A DNA stretch of 55,725 nucleotides from a virus. The notes beneath the pieces were generated by a model, which worked only from the letters and a program-made list of their open reading frames with translations, had not been told where the DNA came from and made no database searches. The position numbers and the translations under genes are program-made. This document shows, piece by piece, positions 1 through 54,710 of this stretch (position 1 is the first letter of the stretch; every line of letters begins with the position of its first letter). Location of the stretch: the IMG/VR virus record IMGVR_UViG_3300046001_005126, positions 1 to 55,725 of that record. One strand, 5' to 3'.

Positions 1-70
1 GGTGCGCGATGGAGTTGTTCCTGACGAACTGATCAAACGAACTTCCGAGTCTATCGTCATCGTCCACTAA
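1..70 (+). CDS. 3' end of hypothetical early protein (continues from the window end)
   Basis: The first 70 bases are the last 22 codons and stop of the gene at 55279-55668. The same bases recur at the window end, where the reading frame is complete. It is listed separately only because the linear window cuts the circular genome inside this gene. See the entry at 55279 for the protein. Confidence 0.85.
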   Translation, partial: VRDGVVPDELIKRTSESIVIVH

Positions 71-5368: not shown

Positions 5369-6973
5369 ATGGCATATGCGAACGGTTTACCGACGAGTTG
5401 GGTGATTGAGAACGAGAAACTGGCAATCGAGGCTACGAAGGCTGCTGCGCGGATCTTCGAAGAACTTGGAGTCAGTTGCGGCGGAGTGAATGCTAACGGC
5501 GATCAGCTTCCGTTCGGTGGCGACGAGCCGTTCGAGAACATTCAGGATGTCCGAGAGGCAATTGTTCTCGGGGATCAGCTTGGCAGGTTGCCCTGGGGGA
5601 CAAATGCGAAGGACAATCGCAGTTATTACATCGCTGATACAGGGCACGCAATCACGGTAAAGCCGAGGGACGAGAATCAGCCGAACTCTGATGCGGTGAA
5701 GCGGATTGAGGCGTTCATTGAGCTGTGGACGGCTGAGAATCAGTGGCAAATGCGGCAGTCGGAAGTCAGTCAACGGTGCGATCGGCACGGTGAGGTGTTC
5801 GACCTGCTGAGTTACGACGACGACGGGATGGTCCGGGTTTACTTTGGCGAGCCACAGGATCTCGACGACGACCCGAAGAGCAGTTTCGTGGATCCGGACG
5901 ACGCTTCGAAGGAATACTTTGATTCGCTGGGCGTCCGGAAGACAAATGATCTCCGCGCTCAGCCGGTCGCGTACTTCCTGAAGGATGTTTGGTATCCGGA
6001 CCTGCGATTCGTCACGAAGATGACAAAGGACGGTAGTCTTGCGAATTACCGGGGCGACACGATTCCGCAGATGGAAGAATCTCAGGATCGGATTCTGGTT
6101 CAGCATCGCAAGAGAAACGTGTTGTCGGCGGATCCCCGGGGGCTCACTCTTTACTGGCCGGTACGCGAAGAACTGATCTTCGCGAAGAAGTTGCTGGCGA
6201 ATCTGATGCGAACGAGTTCGTTTCAGGCGGCGTTCGGTGCGATCCGGACAATCATGGGAAATCCGTCGAGCGATTCGGTCAAGAGTTACCTGAATACGCA
6301 GCAAAATGGCGGCGCGAGCAGCGGGCAATCAGAAACATACGACTTTCCGTCGGCAGCGGTTGTCACAATTCCGTCGCAGATCAAGTACGAGTTTCCGGAG
6401 ACAGGCGCCGGTAACAGTAACCACATAGAAACTCTGGTATCGCTGCTTCGGTCGTGCGCTGCGGGCATGAAACTGCCGGAGTTCATGCTGACGGCAAACG
6501 TCAGCGAGGGGAATTTCGCCTCGACGCTGGTTTCGGAGGGGCCGTTCCACAAGTCGATGCGGTTCGAGCAGTCTCTTATGGTGCAGGAAGACCTGCGGAT
6601 TCTGAAGCAGGCTCTGTGGTACGCTGCGGAGTCGGGACAGCATGACATCACAACGGCTGACGTGCTGCAGGTTGTGCTGGAGATCAAGCCGCCACGAGTT
6701 CAGACGAGAAACCGCCAGGAAGATCACGAGGTGATGAAAGACTGGTGGGATCGTGGCCTGCTGGGGAATAAGACGGTTCTGGCTCCGGAAGGGCTGGAAT
6801 CGGTGGCCGAGAATGCTCAGCGGAAGTCAGAACTGGTAACGGAGCTTCCGTTGCCGGCGGGATCGCCGCAATCGCCGCAGAACATGGGCACTCCGGGTCC
6901 AGTTGCGGGCAATAAAGCCGATCCGATGAAAGAAAAGGGTGTTTCGAAGAAAGATCCGACTCGAAACGCTTAA
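5369..6973 (+). CDS. Portal protein
   Basis: 534 residues, starting M-A-Y-A-N-G-L after a clear GAGGAGA site. Assigned as portal from its place between terminase and protease, its size, and portal-like features: acidic Asp-rich loops in the first half, an R-G-L-T-L-Y-W-P-V-R-E-E-L segment followed by a long helical stretch (A-K-K-L-L-A-N-L-M-R-T-S-S-F-Q-A, about 275-295), and a Pro/Gly-rich C-terminal tail. Portals form the dodecameric DNA channel and connect head to tail. There is no single diagnostic motif, so the call rests mostly on context. Confidence 0.8.
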   Translation: MAYANGLPTSWVIENEKLAIEATKAAARIFEELGVSCGGVNANGDQLPFGGDEPFENIQDVREAIVLGDQLGRLPWGTNAKDNRSYYIADTGHAITVKPRDENQPNSDAVKRIEAFIELWTAENQWQMRQSEVSQRCDRHGEVFDLLSYDDDGMVRVYFGEPQDLDDDPKSSFVDPDDASKEYFDSLGVRKTNDLRAQPVAYFLKDVWYPDLRFVTKMTKDGSLANYRGDTIPQMEESQDRILVQHRKRNVLSADPRGLTLYWPVREELIFAKKLLANLMRTSSFQAAFGAIRTIMGNPSSDSVKSYLNTQQNGGASSGQSETYDFPSAAVVTIPSQIKYEFPETGAGNSNHIETLVSLLRSCAAGMKLPEFMLTANVSEGNFASTLVSEGPFHKSMRFEQSLMVQEDLRILKQALWYAAESGQHDITTADVLQVVLEIKPPRVQTRNRQEDHEVMKDWWDRGLLGNKTVLAPEGLESVAENAQRKSELVTELPLPAGSPQSPQNMGTPGPVAGNKADPMKEKGVSKKDPTRNA

Positions 6974-39560: not shown

Positions 39561-40976
39561 TCAGAACACATCCTCATCAAACAGGTCCATCAGTAACGCA
39601 TCCACGATGTCCCGCTTTTCCTGCCGAGCCTTGATCAGTTTCTCTTCGACAGTCTTCTTCGCCACAAGGTGGTAATAGATTACGTCCCTCGTTTGCCCAG
39701 GCCGATACTGGCGAGCCATCATCTGATCATAGTCGCCAGGCGACATCAGGCCGGAGTTCAGCGTGATGCCAATGCGAGCGCGAGTCAGGTCGATCCCGGA
39801 ACTCCCGGACTTACACTGCACGCCCATGATGTCGATGTCTTCCGGGTACGTCGCATGCTCGGTGAGATCCTTCCGTGCGCCGGAGATCTCTCCGTATCGT
39901 CGACCGAGTATCTCGCAGCATCGTTTGACGATCGCAAGATCATTCTTAAACCACCCGTAAACACAGACCGGCTCGTCGATGTCCTCGAGCAGATCCAGCA
40001 GCACCTTGCGCTTCTCGGTATCCGTGTCGAGTTCTTCGCCTTCCGTGTCCTTGATGAACCCCTGTGAAAGCTGGAGCAGTCGCAGGAACTGCACAGCGCC
40101 GTTCGATCCGACGGCTGTGCGGATTTCTTCGTGTGTTTCTCCGTTCGCGTTCTCGATGGATCGCTTGATGTCGACCATCGATTCCTTTCTCATCTCGTCA
40201 TACAGCTTCCTGCCTTTTGCGCTGAGGGTAACTTCAATGACGATGTCCTGCTTGTCGGGCAGGACCAGAACCTCTGGGCCGATGTAGTACCGGAAGGTAG
40301 AGATCTTTGCGTTCATCCGGTCGAGGTTGACCCATCGGTCGACCTTCTGCGGAATGTACGGATTCATGATCGCGTATTCGTTCTTGAATGCGCCCCAGTA
40401 TTTGCCGAAGATCTGGTCGTTCAGGAAGCGGGCCTGGCCGAAGATGTTGCCGGGATTGTTTGGCATCGGCGTTCCGGTAAGACCCGTCTTCGACCCAGCG
40501 CGAGACCCGAGTTTCCATGCATGCTTGCTGCAGGCCGCTGAAGCCGACATCAGTCGATGCGACTCGTCAGCAACGATCTTCTCCCATGTGAACGACGAGA
40601 ACACTTTCAGAAGTTCTGGTCGCCAGAAGGATTCGTAGGTCACGACGAACACGATCGGTCTTTGATGCGATCGCTGGAGGTTAATGGACGTTGCGACAAG
40701 CAATGCTTTGTCCTTGGACGAACCTTTGTCCAGTACGATTACGTCGAACTCTTCAGGGGCATGCTTGAAGAACTCTCTTCTCCAAACCCCGAGGACCGCT
40801 GAGGGGCAGAGGATGATGGTACGCTTCGTTCCAGTCGTGGAAATCTTGCGCATGTGGGAGACTGCCATGTAGCTCTTTCCGCCCCCCATAATACAATCAA
40901 GAAGACTGTACCTAGTGTGGTCAAGGAATTCTATCGCTTTTGGTTGGTGATTCCAAGTCTGCTTTTGATCAATCAT
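39561..40976 (-). CDS. SNF2-type superfamily 2 helicase
   Basis: 471 residues. Motifs in order: M-G-G-G-K-S-Y near 30-36 (I), D-E-S-H at 137-140 (II), L-T-G-T-P-M near 166-171 (III), and G-I-D-L-T-R-A (V) then M-A-R-Q-Y-R-P-G-Q (VI) toward the end, typical of SNF2-like translocases in phage replication/recombination regions. It moves on DNA and remodels forks or recombination intermediates. Preceded by an HNH gene with stop-start overlap. Confidence 0.92.
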   Translation of the reverse strand: MIDQKQTWNHQPKAIEFLDHTRYSLLDCIMGGGKSYMAVSHMRKISTTGTKRTIILCPSAVLGVWRREFFKHAPEEFDVIVLDKGSSKDKALLVATSINLQRSHQRPIVFVVTYESFWRPELLKVFSSFTWEKIVADESHRLMSASAACSKHAWKLGSRAGSKTGLTGTPMPNNPGNIFGQARFLNDQIFGKYWGAFKNEYAIMNPYIPQKVDRWVNLDRMNAKISTFRYYIGPEVLVLPDKQDIVIEVTLSAKGRKLYDEMRKESMVDIKRSIENANGETHEEIRTAVGSNGAVQFLRLLQLSQGFIKDTEGEELDTDTEKRKVLLDLLEDIDEPVCVYGWFKNDLAIVKRCCEILGRRYGEISGARKDLTEHATYPEDIDIMGVQCKSGSSGIDLTRARIGITLNSGLMSPGDYDQMMARQYRPGQTRDVIYYHLVAKKTVEEKLIKARQEKRDIVDALLMDLFDEDVF

Positions 40977-41506
40977 CGATTCTCACCATGCATATCAGAA
41001 AAACCATACTTCTTTTCAGCGGATTTCCTCGCGGCTACTGCATCATTTATATCTCGATACAAGCCGAGGCCGATTTCTTTTCCGTCGATATGAATTCTAG
41101 CTTGCCACATCTTCCCAGCCTTATGCCACCGAACACCAGTGTGTCCGCTCTTAGGATTCCTCTTCTTCAGGTTCATTGCGTTCTGCTGGTTGGTAACCTC
41201 CCGGAGATTGTCAATCCTGTTGTTCAATCCGTTTCCGTCCTTGTGGTCTATTTGCATTGCAGGCCAACGACCGTAATGCAGAAGCCAAGCAACGCGATGG
41301 GACATAAATGGCGTGTGCTTAATAGACAGAGATCTATAAGTCATCCCATCAGAATCAGTTCTTTCTGCTCCAGCTTCTTCTCCGACATTCTTTCCCATCC
41401 AATAACATCGACGAAGAATCAACCCAGTCTCCGCATGGTAAAAGAAAAGCCTTCTCGCCTCTTCAGCGACTTCTTCGGTCTCTCTTTCCGCCGGTGTCTT
41501 TCTCAT
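40973..41506 (-). CDS. HNH-AP2 homing-type endonuclease
   Basis: 177 residues. S-H-R-V-A-W-L-L-H-Y-G-R-W, then I-D-H-K-D-G-N-G-L-N-N-R-I-D-N-L-R (HNH_3) near 70-100, and an AP2 domain with S-G-H-T-G-V-R-W-H and L-G-L-Y-R-D-I-N-D-A. It sits between two genes on the minus strand with 4-base overlaps at both ends, so its arrival kept the translational coupling. Closest relatives in the window are at 2869 and 54243. Confidence 0.9.
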   Translation of the reverse strand: MRKTPAERETEEVAEEARRLFFYHAETGLILRRCYWMGKNVGEEAGAERTDSDGMTYRSLSIKHTPFMSHRVAWLLHYGRWPAMQIDHKDGNGLNNRIDNLREVTNQQNAMNLKKRNPKSGHTGVRWHKAGKMWQARIHIDGKEIGLGLYRDINDAVAARKSAEKKYGFSDMHGENR

Positions 41507-48602: not shown

Positions 48603-48873
48603 GAAACAGTTTCCTCATGACAATTTCGAACACGCAGACAACAGAATCATGAAAGACCTTCACAGGTCGCCTCGAGTGATTGTTGTGGAGGAATGGCGAG
48701 ACGGGCAGTGTTCGTTCGGTGAGCTTAGTTCGGACGGACATGTCGAAGATACGACACTCATCGGCAAAGTGCTGGAATACGCAGAACGGCGACTCAAGCT
48801 GGATATTCTCGCCGGTCAGTTTGAAGTCGACGGCATCAAGTATGTGTTTGTTGGGCAAAGAGCGAAGGAGTAA
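48595..48873 (+). CDS. Hypothetical protein, 92 aa
   Basis: Eight-base overlap with the previous gene. Charged N-terminus, then a beta-alpha-beta-like segment (R-V-I-V-V-E-E-W, then Y-V-F-V-G-Q-R). Next to a DNA methylase; no motif recognised. Confidence 0.5.
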   Translation: MTEKQFPHDNFEHADNRIMKDLHRSPRVIVVEEWRDGQCSFGELSSDGHVEDTTLIGKVLEYAERRLKLDILAGQFEVDGIKYVFVGQRAKE

Positions 48874-48877
48874 TCTG

Positions 48878-49693
48878 ATGGGCGATTTAACTCAACCGCT
48901 GAAGTGGCATGGAGGCAAGGGTGCCTTCAATGGCAAACTTGCCAAGTGGATTATCTCACTCATGCCGTCTCACCTGCACTACGTCGAACCATACTTTGGC
49001 GGAGGCGCTGTCCTCCTGCACAAAGACCCTGAAGGAGTTTCGGAAGTCGTCAATGATCTCGATAAAGATCTCACCAACTTCTGGCGTGTGCTGGCGCAGA
49101 CTCCTGACCGAATGCTGCGGGCTCTCTGGGGGGCTCCGTTCTCCGAAGTGGAATTCGACAATGCCGTCAAAGATCTCGCCGATTCTGATGCTGTGCGAAG
49201 GGCGACAGCGTTCTTTATCCGCTGCCGACAGTCCCGCCAAGGACTCCAGAAGGACTTCGCAACTCTCAGCCGCAACCGGACGCGAGGTGGCATGAACGAA
49301 CAAGTCTCCGCCTGGTTGACTGCAGTCGACGGATTACCAGATGTGCATGAGCGACTGAAGCGGGTCGTTGTCCTGAACCGCGATGCACTGGATGTGATTA
49401 AGCAGCAGGATAGCGAGAATACCTGCTTCTACCTCGATCCTCCGTACCTTCATGGCACGAGAGTCACCACGAAGGACTATAAGCATGAGATGACGATTCA
49501 CGACCATGCCGACTTGCACCGATGCCTCTTCAAGATCAAAGGAAAGTTCCTGCTGAGCGGATATCCGCACGAATTGTACGACAAAGGCGCAATTGCCGGT
49601 GGCTGGAAGCGTCATGAGTTCAAAATCGCGAACAATGCCAGTGGAGCCGACGTAAAAGAGATCAAAACTGAGTGCGTTTGGACAAACTTCTGA
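48878..49693 (+). CDS. Dam-type DNA adenine methyltransferase
   Basis: 271 residues. L-K-W-H-G-G-K-G near 8-15 and Y-F-G-G-G-A-V-L near 39-46 are the SAM-binding end of Dam-like (D12 class) enzymes, and D-P-P-Y near 187 is the catalytic motif. The ATG at 48878 follows AAGGAG. N6-adenine methylation protects phage DNA from host restriction or marks it for repair. No matching endonuclease lies next to it. Confidence 0.9.
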   Translation: MGDLTQPLKWHGGKGAFNGKLAKWIISLMPSHLHYVEPYFGGGAVLLHKDPEGVSEVVNDLDKDLTNFWRVLAQTPDRMLRALWGAPFSEVEFDNAVKDLADSDAVRRATAFFIRCRQSRQGLQKDFATLSRNRTRGGMNEQVSAWLTAVDGLPDVHERLKRVVVLNRDALDVIKQQDSENTCFYLDPPYLHGTRVTTKDYKHEMTIHDHADLHRCLFKIKGKFLLSGYPHELYDKGAIAGGWKRHEFKIANNASGADVKEIKTECVWTNF

Positions 49694-49704
49694 AGGAAAT
49701 GACC

Positions 49705-50268
49705 ATGGGCGAAATGACGTACAACAAACTCTCCGGATGGGTCAAAGTCGACGGAGTTCGCGTTGGACAAAACCGACCGACGGGCAGAGTGCTTCGTATT
49801 CCGATGGAACAGAAGTATCAGGGACTTCCGGCACACAAAGTCGTGAAGGAAGAACTCTGGATCTGGGAAAACGAAACCGCAATGGCGCCCGTCGGTGATA
49901 TTGTGCATCTGAATGGCGATCCGTTCGATAATCGATGGCGGAACCTGCGGGATCAGGACGGGTTGGAGGTTGAGGCGAAGGATGAACAGTGGCTCCGGTT
50001 CTTCCTGAGGTTGGCGTCCGGAGCGATGGCTGTCGAGTATCTGCAGAAGACCGGACAGCTCGTCGATAACTCCGACGGCGAAGAGCGTGGGCGGAATGTT
50101 GTGAAGATGGTCGATGACAGGCCGGTCGTCTTCTGGGCCGGTGAATGGTTCGCTGCGGAGGATGTCGCGTATTTTTTGGCGACTGGCGTTTGGCCGGAAC
50201 GCGGGGTTCGGCAGGTTAACGGAGAGTTTTGCGATCTTAGGTTGGCGAATTTGAGGAGGATTGTGTGA
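49705..50268 (+). CDS. Protein with HNH_3-like repeats, 187 aa
   Basis: Two copies of the N-x-D-x-x-D-N-R-x-x-N-L-R type element: V-H-L-N-G-D-P-F-D-N-R-W-R-N-L-R near 72-87 and V-N-G-E-F-C-D-L-R-L-A-N-L-R near 171-184. The first keeps His and the Asn/Asp set, the second has lost the His. No AP2 domain. Start at 49705 rather than 49699 from spacing to AAGGA. It may be a DNA-binding or degenerate endonuclease protein. Confidence 0.55.
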   Translation: MGEMTYNKLSGWVKVDGVRVGQNRPTGRVLRIPMEQKYQGLPAHKVVKEELWIWENETAMAPVGDIVHLNGDPFDNRWRNLRDQDGLEVEAKDEQWLRFFLRLASGAMAVEYLQKTGQLVDNSDGEERGRNVVKMVDDRPVVFWAGEWFAAEDVAYFLATGVWPERGVRQVNGEFCDLRLANLRRIV

Positions 50269-50724: not shown

Positions 50725-50969
50725 CGGTTTATTACGTTGAACTTTACGCAGAATTCAAAGAACAAGTGATTACCGCTCTTGTGCAAAAACACATGATTCA
50801 GCAAGTGACGTTCGATCGGGATGGCTACATGACAATCAGTGACCTGATCCCGAAGTCACTGAATAAGAAAATTATTCTCGCCGCAGTAACGTGGAATGAG
50901 GCAATCGGCGATGCCAGAGACAAACTACAAAAACTTGTGATCGAACTCGGAAAGAATGAGTCACCCTAA
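50721..50969 (+). CDS. Hypothetical protein, 82 aa
   Basis: ATGA overlap. Starts with M-T-V-Y-Y-V-E-L-Y-A-E-F-K-E, a compact alpha/beta look, and ends in a helix. The stop overlaps the helicase start. Unknown function. Confidence 0.5.
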   Translation: MTVYYVELYAEFKEQVITALVQKHMIQQVTFDRDGYMTISDLIPKSLNKKIILAAVTWNEAIGDARDKLQKLVIELGKNESP

Positions 50970-53185
50970 TGGTAGAGACGCATGTTGTAGTAGGTATAGC
51001 AGGCGCTGGAAAGACACAAAAAGGAATGGAAGTCCTTGAGGAGCGTCTTCGTGGCGGTCTGAAGTGGCATCAGGTGGGATATAGTAGTTTCAGTCGATCC
51101 GCGTGTCTCGAAGCGGCTCAGAGGGCCTCTCGGCTCACTGGCGTCGATTGTGATCGATTGCAGAAGGAAGGTTTCTTCAGAACGATACATTCTTCGGTTC
51201 TACGCTTGTTGGGACTGGATCCAAAGTGTATCTTGGATCACGACTCGGCTGAAGGCCGGAAGTTTATGACGGAAGTTCTCGGGGCTCCCAGAGGTGGTGA
51301 GACTGGAACTCTGTCGGCAAAAATTGATGATGCATTGAACTGGTGGGATCTGACGCGGGCTCGACTGACCCGTCTAAAACAGATCGATGACCCCGTAGGG
51401 GTATACAAAACCAGCGATCACCCTGATCACCCAAGATCAGCCTCCGTGCGCCCGCATTTTGGGGTGGGCGCACGCACTTTTTCCAATGAAAACACAGGGT
51501 TTTCTGAAGCTCCGAATAATATTCTACCTATAGGAGGTATTTTTAATTCAGAATTATCCCTACATGCTCCTATACGCGAAATTGTTTTTCCGGGTGAGCG
51601 AGGTGTAACATGTGATAAAAAATGGCCTTATATGCAGGATATTTTACGTTCAGGCACTGGGTGGCGGTTGGGTGGCGGTGGGTCTGCAGGTGAGCGCAAA
51701 AACGGCGAAATAAGGCCAGATTGCGATAAGATGCGTAGCTTTGGAGAGATAGTGACAAAATACGAGACTCAGAAGCGAGTCTGGGGGAAGCTGGACTTTT
51801 GTGACCTGCTGTTCAAGTATGCAGGTCTTCGAGTCGACGAGAACCTCGAGTTTCAGGAAACGTACCCGGAAGGATCTGTTCCGGCTGAAATTGATTTGTG
51901 GATCATCGACGAGTTTCAGGATTGCTCGAGCATCTTGGATCGCTGCTGCCAGAGGCTCGCAGAGGCTGCTAGAGAGCTTTGGCTGCTCGGGGACGTATAT
52001 CAGTCCGTCTACGGATTCAGTGGCTCTGAGTGGCAAATAATGCGATCAAGGGAGTTGCAGGCCAAAGAAGAAGGAAAACGTGTAGTTCTGAACAGGTCTT
52101 GGAGGAATCCGGAACCAGTGATTGAGTGGGGCGAAGACATCCTGAGGAGAGATCCGCAGTATGAGTCAAGGGAGGCGGTTAGCGAGACTGGAGAAGGAAC
52201 CACTGGTTTGGTGGAATGGAAGGAATTAGTAAGATTACTGCCGCTGCTGGTGAATTCAGACACGATGGTCCTGAGTCGCACATGGTTTAACCTTGGGAAG
52301 GTTACGCAGTTTCTGGACTCTGCGGGGATTCCGTGGAAGTCGATTCAGGAGAAGATGAAGTCTCGATGGGAATCGCCGGTCCAGATTGCCTTCGTGCTGG
52401 TGATGAGGGATTTGAGGGACGGGAAGAGGATCTCAGAACAGGACTGGCGGAGAGTCACCGAGGAACTCCCTCAGAAGATGGATGGGAAGGAATTGTTCGT
52501 CCGTGGGGCGAAGGCGAAGTGGAAGAAGACCGAATGCAGCCAGGAGTTGAAGCGGACGTTGGATGAACTCGAGGAGTGGGGCGCTGGGCCGGAGTTTGCA
52601 GAGTTCATCAGGAGTGAGCGATGGCGAGTCGACAAGGTACTGCTGCTGGATCAGGCAATCGACCGATTCGGAATCGACTGCGTCAGAGATCCCGGGCTGC
52701 GACTGGGATCCTGTCACTCAGCGAAAGGACTCGGCGCTCGAAATGTGTTCGTGCTTGCCTCGAGTACTGAGAAGGCATCAGGGGCTGCAGTGGACTTCTA
52801 TGAAGACCTGTTCCTGAAGTATGTTGCCATTACCAGAACCAGAGAGAACTACAGACTGGTGGTCGACCAGATGGACTTGGCGCGAGGAAAGCCGATGTTC
52901 TGGGCGGCTCCAAAGGGATTCAGAGAGTTCATCAGCTTGCCGGAAGGAGCGTTTCGTGAAAGAGAGCGACATACAGACGAAGATTTTGAGATGGGCGGAG
53001 AAGTTGCCGGAAGTCTGGATCGTGAAGTATCCGGGGGGAACCTACGGTCGGAAGGGAGTCCCGGATCTGCTGCTGTCAGTGAAGGGGAAGTTCCTCGCGA
53101 TCGAGGTGAAAAAACCCGGAGGAAAACCGACTCAGATGCAGTTGATGGAGCAGGAGAAGATTCGTATGACTGGATCTCGATCTGA
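50969..53185 (+). CDS. UvrD-like superfamily 1 helicase with in-frame insertion
   Basis: 738 residues. Motif I G-I-A-G-A-G-K-T (9-16), F-F-R-T-I-H-S (Ia) near 68, motif II I-I-D-E-F-Q-D near 312, motif III V-Y-G-F-S-G-S near 349, and late H-S-A-K-G-L-G (V) near 582 and V-A-I-T-R-T-R-E-N (VI) near 618. It unwinds DNA in replication or repair. Residues about 142-252 are an AT-rich insertion unlike helicases of this class. The last 77 codons overlap the VRR-NUC gene in another frame and have a noncoding-like composition. Confidence 0.88.
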   Translation: MVETHVVVGIAGAGKTQKGMEVLEERLRGGLKWHQVGYSSFSRSACLEAAQRASRLTGVDCDRLQKEGFFRTIHSSVLRLLGLDPKCILDHDSAEGRKFMTEVLGAPRGGETGTLSAKIDDALNWWDLTRARLTRLKQIDDPVGVYKTSDHPDHPRSASVRPHFGVGARTFSNENTGFSEAPNNILPIGGIFNSELSLHAPIREIVFPGERGVTCDKKWPYMQDILRSGTGWRLGGGGSAGERKNGEIRPDCDKMRSFGEIVTKYETQKRVWGKLDFCDLLFKYAGLRVDENLEFQETYPEGSVPAEIDLWIIDEFQDCSSILDRCCQRLAEAARELWLLGDVYQSVYGFSGSEWQIMRSRELQAKEEGKRVVLNRSWRNPEPVIEWGEDILRRDPQYESREAVSETGEGTTGLVEWKELVRLLPLLVNSDTMVLSRTWFNLGKVTQFLDSAGIPWKSIQEKMKSRWESPVQIAFVLVMRDLRDGKRISEQDWRRVTEELPQKMDGKELFVRGAKAKWKKTECSQELKRTLDELEEWGAGPEFAEFIRSERWRVDKVLLLDQAIDRFGIDCVRDPGLRLGSCHSAKGLGARNVFVLASSTEKASGAAVDFYEDLFLKYVAITRTRENYRLVVDQMDLARGKPMFWAAPKGFREFISLPEGAFRERERHTDEDFEMGGEVAGSLDREVSGGNLRSEGSPGSAAVSEGEVPRDRGEKTRRKTDSDAVDGAGEDSYDWISI
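51390..51735 (+). other. AT-rich in-frame insertion inside the helicase gene
   Basis: Codon use and base make-up change abruptly here. It holds an 8-bp GC stem (GTGCGCCC about 51446-51453, GGGCGCAC about 51467-51474) soon followed by CTTTTTCC, and an AT-rich half with no regular codon pattern, yet no stop over about 110 codons. It separates L-T-R-L-K-Q-I-D-D from the F-G-E-I-V helix, which are near neighbours in related helicases. Edges approximate. Might be a mobile palindromic element or an intron-like sequence. Confidence 0.6.
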
Positions 53186-53246
53186 GATCGTTGAGAGCTT
53201 TGTTGAGGCGAAGTTGATTATTTTGGAGGTGTTGAATGGTGAGTAA
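52956..53246 (+). CDS. VRR-NUC domain nuclease
   Basis: 96 residues, GTG start with AAGGAG nine bases before. G-V-P-D-L-L-L near 37, then A-I-E-V-K-K-P-G-G-K-P-T near 52-63, is the restriction-like PD-(D/E)xK core of VRR-NUC proteins. The N-terminus S-D-I-Q-T-K-I-L-R-W also fits. These small enzymes act on branched DNA with phage helicases. It shares 230 bases with the end of the helicase frame. Confidence 0.88.
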   Translation: MKESDIQTKILRWAEKLPEVWIVKYPGGTYGRKGVPDLLLSVKGKFLAIEVKKPGGKPTQMQLMEQEKIRMTGSRSEIVESFVEAKLIILEVLNGE

Positions 53247-53640
53247 ACCAAATGTTCCTGCTGATGGGCTGAAGTGGATTGCATCGCGAAGTCACTTCAA
53301 GGTCTGGATAAAGGTGCTGAATGGGCACAAATTTGTCGGATGCTTCAAAACATTCGAAGATGCTTACGCTGCCAGAAAACAGGCGACTATCGAATATCTT
53401 GAGAAAAGAAGTCTCACTGGAGAGCGTAGGACACTTCAAAAACCAGTAAAAAACAGCAAGAGCGGAGTCACTGGAGTGAGATGGAACGAAAAAAGGCAGA
53501 GATGGCAAGCATTAGTGAAGGTTGACAAGAAACAGATCCATCTCGGGTTCTTCGTCGAGAAGGACGCTGCCATTGCTGCGAGACAAGCAGCCAACGTAAA
53601 GTACGGGTTCTTTCCCAGTGAGAAGACCGGAGAAAAATGA
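53236..53640 (+). CDS. Tandem AP2-domain protein without HNH, 134 aa
   Basis: Two AP2-like units: residues about 13-60 (W-I-K-V-L-N-G-H-K-F-V-G-C-F-K-T-F-E-D-A-Y-A) and 75-128 (G-V-T-G-V-R-W-N, then I-H-L-G-F-F-V-E-K-D-A-A). No I-D-H-x-N-G-D core, so it is a DNA-binding relative of the HNH-AP2 genes that lost or never had the nuclease. Overlaps the genes on both sides. Confidence 0.8.
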   Translation: MVSKPNVPADGLKWIASRSHFKVWIKVLNGHKFVGCFKTFEDAYAARKQATIEYLEKRSLTGERRTLQKPVKNSKSGVTGVRWNEKRQRWQALVKVDKKQIHLGFFVEKDAAIAARQAANVKYGFFPSEKTGEK

Positions 53641-54018: not shown

Positions 54019-54225
54019 CTAACTCAACGAATCAAAGCTAATCCCTGGCGACTCTTGCCTCCGGGGAACAGGGGCATCCCATGGGAATCCGTGGGTCCGG
54101 CGATAGAAGTGCAACAACGCCGTTTTGTCGTTCGGGCATTCTGCCATAACGCCGAAACAATGCAAGCGAAGAATCCGACGTGCCTCTGCTGCTACCTTGC
54201 ACACCGGAGCATCAGGTGGTAGCAT
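54019..54225 (-). CDS. Possible minus-strand small protein, 68 aa
   Basis: The only long frame in the 270-base gap between 53972 and 54243, with a matching leftward terminator just beyond its stop. The protein has C-K-V-A-A-E-A-R-R-I-L-R-L-H-C-F and R-R-T-H-G-F-P-W-D segments. No ribosome site is visible. It may be real or chance. Confidence 0.35.
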   Translation of the reverse strand: MLPPDAPVCKVAAEARRILRLHCFGVMAECPNDKTALLHFYRRTHGFPWDAPVPRRQESPGISFDSLS

Positions 54226-54242
54226 CCCGCAAGGAGGCTACT

Positions 54243-54710
54243 ATGATTTCGATTGAGACACTTCGTGAAAAGTATTCGTACAACCCTGAGACCGGCGAGA
54301 TCAGGAATCGCAAACTGGGATTCGCGATTACGAATCGATGCAAGAACCGCAACACACACTATCAGTATCTGAAGGTTGGCGAATCGATAGTTTCAGCTCA
54401 TCGCGCAGCCTGGGCTATGCATCATGGAGAGTGGCCGAACGGTCAGATTGATCATCGAGACGGCGATGGAATGAACAACCGGATCGACAATCTCAGAGAT
54501 GCTACGCACTCGCAGAACCAGAGGAATCAGCGACTCCACGCAAGGAATAAGACCGGGGTTCGCGGTGTCTGCCTCTGCAAGAGGACTGGCAGATGGCAGG
54601 CACTGATATGGGATGGAAACGGGAAGAGGGTTTTCATCGGTCGCTTCGAGACCATTGAAGCCGCCGCTGCTGCTCGCAAAGAAGCTGAGTTGAAGTATTG
54701 GGTCGAGTGA
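54243..54710 (+). CDS. HNH-AP2 homing-type endonuclease
   Basis: 155 residues, ATG after AAGGAGG. H-R-A-A-W-A-M-H-H-G-E-W near 56, I-D-H-R-D-G-D-G-M-N-N-R-I-D-N-L-R near 75-91 (HNH_3), then T-G-V-R-G-V-C-L and I-G-R-F-E-T-I-E-A-A (AP2) to the end. It is the last gene before the origin-like region and is not coupled to a neighbour, unlike the other copies. Confidence 0.9.
   Translation: MISIETLREKYSYNPETGEIRNRKLGFAITNRCKNRNTHYQYLKVGESIVSAHRAAWAMHHGEWPNGQIDHRDGDGMNNRIDNLRDATHSQNQRNQRLHARNKTGVRGVCLCKRTGRWQALIWDGNGKRVFIGRFETIEAAAAARKEAELKYWVE

What the first reader, a model, noticed from the sequence alone, without database searches (positions are those of the whole stretch)
51390..51735. AT-rich, hairpin-bearing insertion kept in frame within an SF1 helicase
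About 340 bases interrupt the helicase between motif Ia and motif II. The stretch differs in composition from its flanks, carries a terminator-like GC hairpin with a T-run, and an AGGAGG-like sequence, yet has no stop codon in the helicase frame. Possibilities are a palindromic mobile element that inserts in frame (as Rickettsia palindromic elements do), a small self-splicing intron, a translational bypass segment, or a poorly conserved linker.
Basis: partly seen in the sequence, partly recalled or inferred. Interest (0 to 1): 0.66.

Follow-up and report, generated by a model that had tools for sequence, protein, structure and literature searches.

The report
Foreign-looking in-frame insert in phage helicase
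A phage DNA-unwinding enzyme carries a stretch of about 320 bases that does not look like the rest of the phage genome and is absent from its distant relatives; it is most likely translated as a loose extra loop, and its DNA seems to be exchanged between phages separately from the gene around it.

Summary
The SF1 helicase (50969-53185, 738 aa) carries a ~320-nt insert (about 51405-51724) that eight distant phage helicases and an intermediate one (L037, 30% identical) lack. Two close relatives from other metagenomes (L002, L003) have an insert at the same point (320 and 296 nt). The least phage-like windows of all three genomes lie over it, yet it has no stop in the helicase frame, while the other five frames have 2-11. 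dN/dS is 0.54-0.76 in the insert against 0.08-0.15 in the flanking helicase. W and L002 differ little in the insert (pS 0.16) although their flanks differ much (0.42-0.63); W and L003 inserts are mostly unalignable apart from a 5' block, a 73-nt central block and CCTATA-type sites. I read it as non-coding-type DNA captured in a loop of domain 1B, translated as an unconstrained linker, with alleles exchanged by recombination. No further copy, Rfam match or intron core was found: membership in Rickettsia-type palindromic elements is not met, and splicing is unsupported though not excluded. The hairpin is not conserved in L003, and the AGGAGG is not conserved at all. Ordinary in kind; mildly unusual.

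The parts
50969..53185 (+). SF1 (UvrD/Rep-type) helicase gene, 738 codons, interrupted by the insert
   Evidence: PF00580 5.8e-15, PHROG 1967 DNA helicase 3.3e-32
51405..51724 (+). In-frame insert, about 107 codons; 5' edge uncertain by about 10 nt
   Evidence: absent from nine divergent homologues; lowest Markov likelihood in the genome; dN/dS 0.54-0.76
51398..51429 (+). 5' edge block; 51405-51429 is identical in W, L002 and L003
   Evidence: alignment; 47-nt 98% match W-L003; found only in these phages in IMG/VR
51445..51474 (+). GC-rich hairpin, 11 pairs, followed by a T-run at 51478-51482
   Evidence: L003 has a weaker hairpin of different sequence near the same place
51527..51532 (+). CCTATA site 1
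51562..51634 (+). Central block, 77% identical between W and L003 while its neighbours are barely alignable; holds CCTATA site 2 (51569-51574) and a degenerate site 3, CCTTATA (51626-51632)
51658..51679 (+). Two tandem copies of TGGGTGGCGGT in W (not exact in L002)
51725..51760 (+). 3' flank where helicase homology resumes, ahead of LDFCDLL
   Evidence: W-L003 91.5% from 51725 on; homologue alignment

Best explanation
A roughly 300-nt piece of non-coding-type DNA entered the helicase gene of an ancestor of these phages, in frame, in a loop of domain 1B ahead of the helix that leads to the LDFxDLL segment (shown: divergent homologues lack it, close relatives share the site; foreign origin inferred from composition). 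The ribosome reads through it (inferred from the stop-free frame in diverged alleles and the kept length modulo 3), adding about 107 residues of unconstrained, probably disordered protein that the helicase tolerates (shown: weak protein constraint beside strongly constrained flanks; disorder inferred). Alleles of the insert are exchanged between phages partly independently of the flanking gene, perhaps by recombination through the conserved 5' block (inferred from discordant divergence).
For: Empty site in nine homologues including L037. Same site occupied in two contigs from other metagenomes, so an assembly error is unlikely. Zero in-frame stops in three sequences against 2-11 in other frames, per-sequence chance 0.01-0.04; lengths 320/320/296 differ by a multiple of three although the alignment needs indels of other sizes. 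dN/dS 0.54-0.76 vs 0.08-0.15. Most atypical composition of the genome in the three phages. W-L002 pS is 0.16 in the insert vs 0.63 upstream and 0.42 downstream, while W-L003 pS is 0.55 in the insert vs 0.32 downstream.
Against: Only three sequences, two of them nearly identical over half the insert. No second copy or donor was found, so foreign origin and mobility are inferred. The helicase-frame codon score in the insert is only slightly better than frame +1. A passively open frame also occurs elsewhere in this gene (tail overlapping the nuclease gene). The structure model was too poor to test disorder.
Confidence: 0.55

Rival explanations
1. Ordinary fast-evolving disordered loop that grew within the protein by small indels and repeats, with no separate element involved.
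For: Weak protein constraint and frame-keeping indels; other homologues vary somewhat in length here.
Against: Sharp edges, most atypical composition of the genome, DNA blocks and CCTATA sites kept without codon-position bias, discordant W-L002 divergence.
Confidence: 0.2
2. A cis-acting DNA site (replication origin, operator cluster or recombination site) lodged in the gene; the CCTATA sites are bound by a phage or host protein, and the protein loop is a by-product.
For: CCTATA counts of 3-4 (both strands) in ~300 nt of insert against 0-3 in the rest of each genome; three sites per insert (the third degenerate in W) kept at similar spacing, 42-46 and about 56-58 nt, where the neighbouring DNA has diverged; conserved 5' block.
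Against: CTATA words are rare in these genomes generally and the Markov expectation is also low, so the cluster may just reflect foreign composition; no GC-skew turn at the insert; L003 keeps little else.
Confidence: 0.15
3. An undescribed small intron removed from the mRNA.
For: The insert-free protein aligns cleanly with homologues; DNA blocks rather than protein are conserved.
Against: No Rfam match to any intron, even at E<=10; the consensus fold has an unfavourable covariation term, and the W insert as a whole folds little better than shuffles, z -1.1; stop-free frame.
Confidence: 0.07
4. Translational bypass of the insert.
For: None beyond the clean fit of the insert-free protein.
Against: Length and open frame; known bypass gaps are far shorter (own knowledge).
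Confidence: 0.03

Closest known systems
Rickettsia palindromic elements (RPEs) and other in-frame intragenic MITEs
   Same: Non-coding-like DNA read in frame inside a conserved gene (review PMC10969869).
   Different: Single copy, no palindrome over the whole, no clear terminal inverted repeats, about twice the ~150 bp length, in a phage.
Group I introns and IStrons of phages and bacteria
   Same: Insertions in conserved genes that can be exchanged between genomes.
   Different: No catalytic core detected; the frame stays open.
PHROG 1967 / UvrD-like phage helicases (e.g. Dinoroseobacter phage R5C, Pseudanabaena phage Pan1, Pelagibacter phage HTVC027P)
   Same: The interrupted gene belongs here.
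   Different: These have no insert and are 475-535 aa long.

Membership tests
Rickettsia palindromic element / MITE | Multiple related copies in the genome or relatives | tested here: not met
   Single copy in G000, G001, G002; none elsewhere in IMG/VR, GTDB, phages or plasmids with the patterns used
Rickettsia palindromic element / MITE | Palindromic structure or terminal inverted repeats | tested here: not met
   Only short inverted repeats; overall fold z -1.1
Rickettsia palindromic element / MITE | In-frame insertion into a coding gene without stop | tested here: met
Group I or group II intron | Conserved catalytic core (Rfam models) | tested here: not met
Group I or group II intron | Precise excision from mRNA | not testable with these tools
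   needs RT-PCR
UvrD/SF1 helicase (interrupted gene) | UvrD-helicase domain match, Walker A and DExQ motifs | tested here: met
Translational bypass (T4 gene 60 type) | Matched take-off and landing codons around a short untranslated gap | not tested
   the stretch is far longer than known gaps; no systematic search made

The most novel reading that the evidence does not exclude
A new kind of small phage mobile cassette or intron that homes into a helicase gene through its conserved 5' block and stays harmless because it is kept in frame or is spliced out.
Probability: 0.1. Interest if true: 0.75.

Novelty: new variant of a known kind. Interest (0 to 1): 0.35.

Why it matters
If the reading is right it is a phage example of non-coding-type DNA being carried as protein inside a conserved replication enzyme, with allele exchange; it bears on how new protein segments arise and how mosaic single phage genes can be.

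Tried and rejected
Rfam scans. Copies of the insert in own and related genomes, in phages and plasmids as DNA (17, 18), as protein in the helicase frame (72, 73; the one plasmid hit, E 0.6, is not meaningful) and in a minus-strand frame (74, phages only). Motif scans of IMG/VR and GTDB (11, 16, 27, 28, 76). Thirty loci with a related terminase (62): 28 records other than those of L002 and L003 were searched and are mostly fragments; one reaches only the helicase 3' end (64). A possibly covarying hairpin at the 5' edge (columns 8-25 of A3) was looked at: two double changes in L002, but one pair breaks in L003, so it was not counted. A separate ORF inside the insert is not supported: frame +1 has stops in all three sequences (22). 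The AlphaFold model is unusable, mean pLDDT 32 (75). A recollection of TATAGG repeat arrays in plasmids could not be confirmed and was dropped.

Full report
Observation. The helicase gene runs from 50969 to 53185 and matches PF00580 and PHROG 1967. The named stretch is there. Two IMG/VR contigs from other metagenomes, L002 (87% identical helicase) and L003 (83%), carry an insert at the same point, which makes an assembly error unlikely.

Edges. Eight divergent phage helicases of 475-535 aa and the closer L037 (30% identical over the C-terminal part) were aligned with the window protein. With residues 147-252 taken out, the window protein aligns through from '...DDPVGVY' to 'DKMRSFGEIV', so the extra residues are about 146-252. 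In DNA the 3' edge is sharp at 51724/51725, where W-L003 identity resumes at 91.5%; the 5' edge lies near 51398-51405 inside a block shared by all three phages.

Coding status. The helicase frame has no stop in any of the three; the other five frames have 2-11. Markov simulation gives 0.009-0.019 for W and L002 and 0.03-0.04 for L003; W and L002 are not independent. Mismatches lose their third-position bias in the insert and dN/dS is 0.54-0.76 there against 0.08-0.15 in the flanks, so the peptide is weakly constrained at most. Together: probably translated, and tolerated.

Foreign look. Under an order-3 Markov model of each genome the least likely windows overlap the insert in all three (in L002's genome one unrelated window near 40.76 kb scores about as low as the exact insert). 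GC is only slightly lower (0.48 vs 0.52 in W), so 'AT-rich' overstates it. CTATA-type words, almost missing from these genomes, cluster in the insert.

Allele history. W and L002 differ little in the insert (pS 0.16) but much in the flanks (0.63 and 0.42); W and L003 show the reverse against the downstream flank (0.55 in the insert, 0.32 downstream). The W-L002 similarity is strongest in the 5' half and the last ~25-45 nt of the insert. Windows as similar as this occur elsewhere in the W-L002 comparison (about the top 1-2%), so it is the contrast with the immediate flanks that matters. The discordance suggests exchange of the insert apart from the gene. Constraint on the DNA alone would not explain why L003, the closer relative downstream, differs most. 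That the 5' block is where exchange happens is a guess.

Mechanism and rivals. The best-supported reading is capture of non-coding-type DNA in a domain 1B loop, read through by the ribosome. Placement in domain 1B rests on the position between motif Ia and motif II and on general knowledge of UvrD-type helicases, not on a model. Splicing has no support from Rfam or from covariation, but no RNA data exist. A DNA site role is possible because the CCTATA sites stay in place while their surroundings diverge; the low genome-wide expectation of these words weakens this.

Known kinds. The behaviour is like Rickettsia palindromic elements (about 150 bp, in-frame; PMC10969869), but repetition and palindromy were tested and not met, so it is not filed there.

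Limits. The structure model is unusable.

Noticed in passing
52956-53246: A VRR-NUC-like nuclease gene overlaps the last ~75 helicase codons in another frame; in the overlap substitutions fall mostly on the nuclease's third positions, so the helicase tail looks passively overprinted (helicase-frame dN/dS 1.75-3.95; the PF08774 hit is below its curated cut-off).
   Followed up: partly
48827-49693: D12-class adenine methyltransferase gene in W; no blastn match to the L002 or L003 contigs over this stretch.
   Followed up: no
53236-53640 and 54180-54710: AP2 and HNH-AP2 genes, homing-endonuclease-like; blastn aligns this stretch with L002's contig but most of it not with L003's, which also has the divergent insert allele (n=3).
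   Followed up: partly
49672-50268: HNH_3 endonuclease-like gene about 1.1 kb upstream of the insert.
   Followed up: no
L034 about 5700-6080 (G002:C1 25700-26080): Tandem array of 27-nt units containing GGTGATC in the L003 phage.
   Followed up: no
40840-41040: Second most atypical stretch of W by composition, around the divergent start of the SF2 helicase gene; the matching place in L002's genome is also atypical.
   Followed up: no
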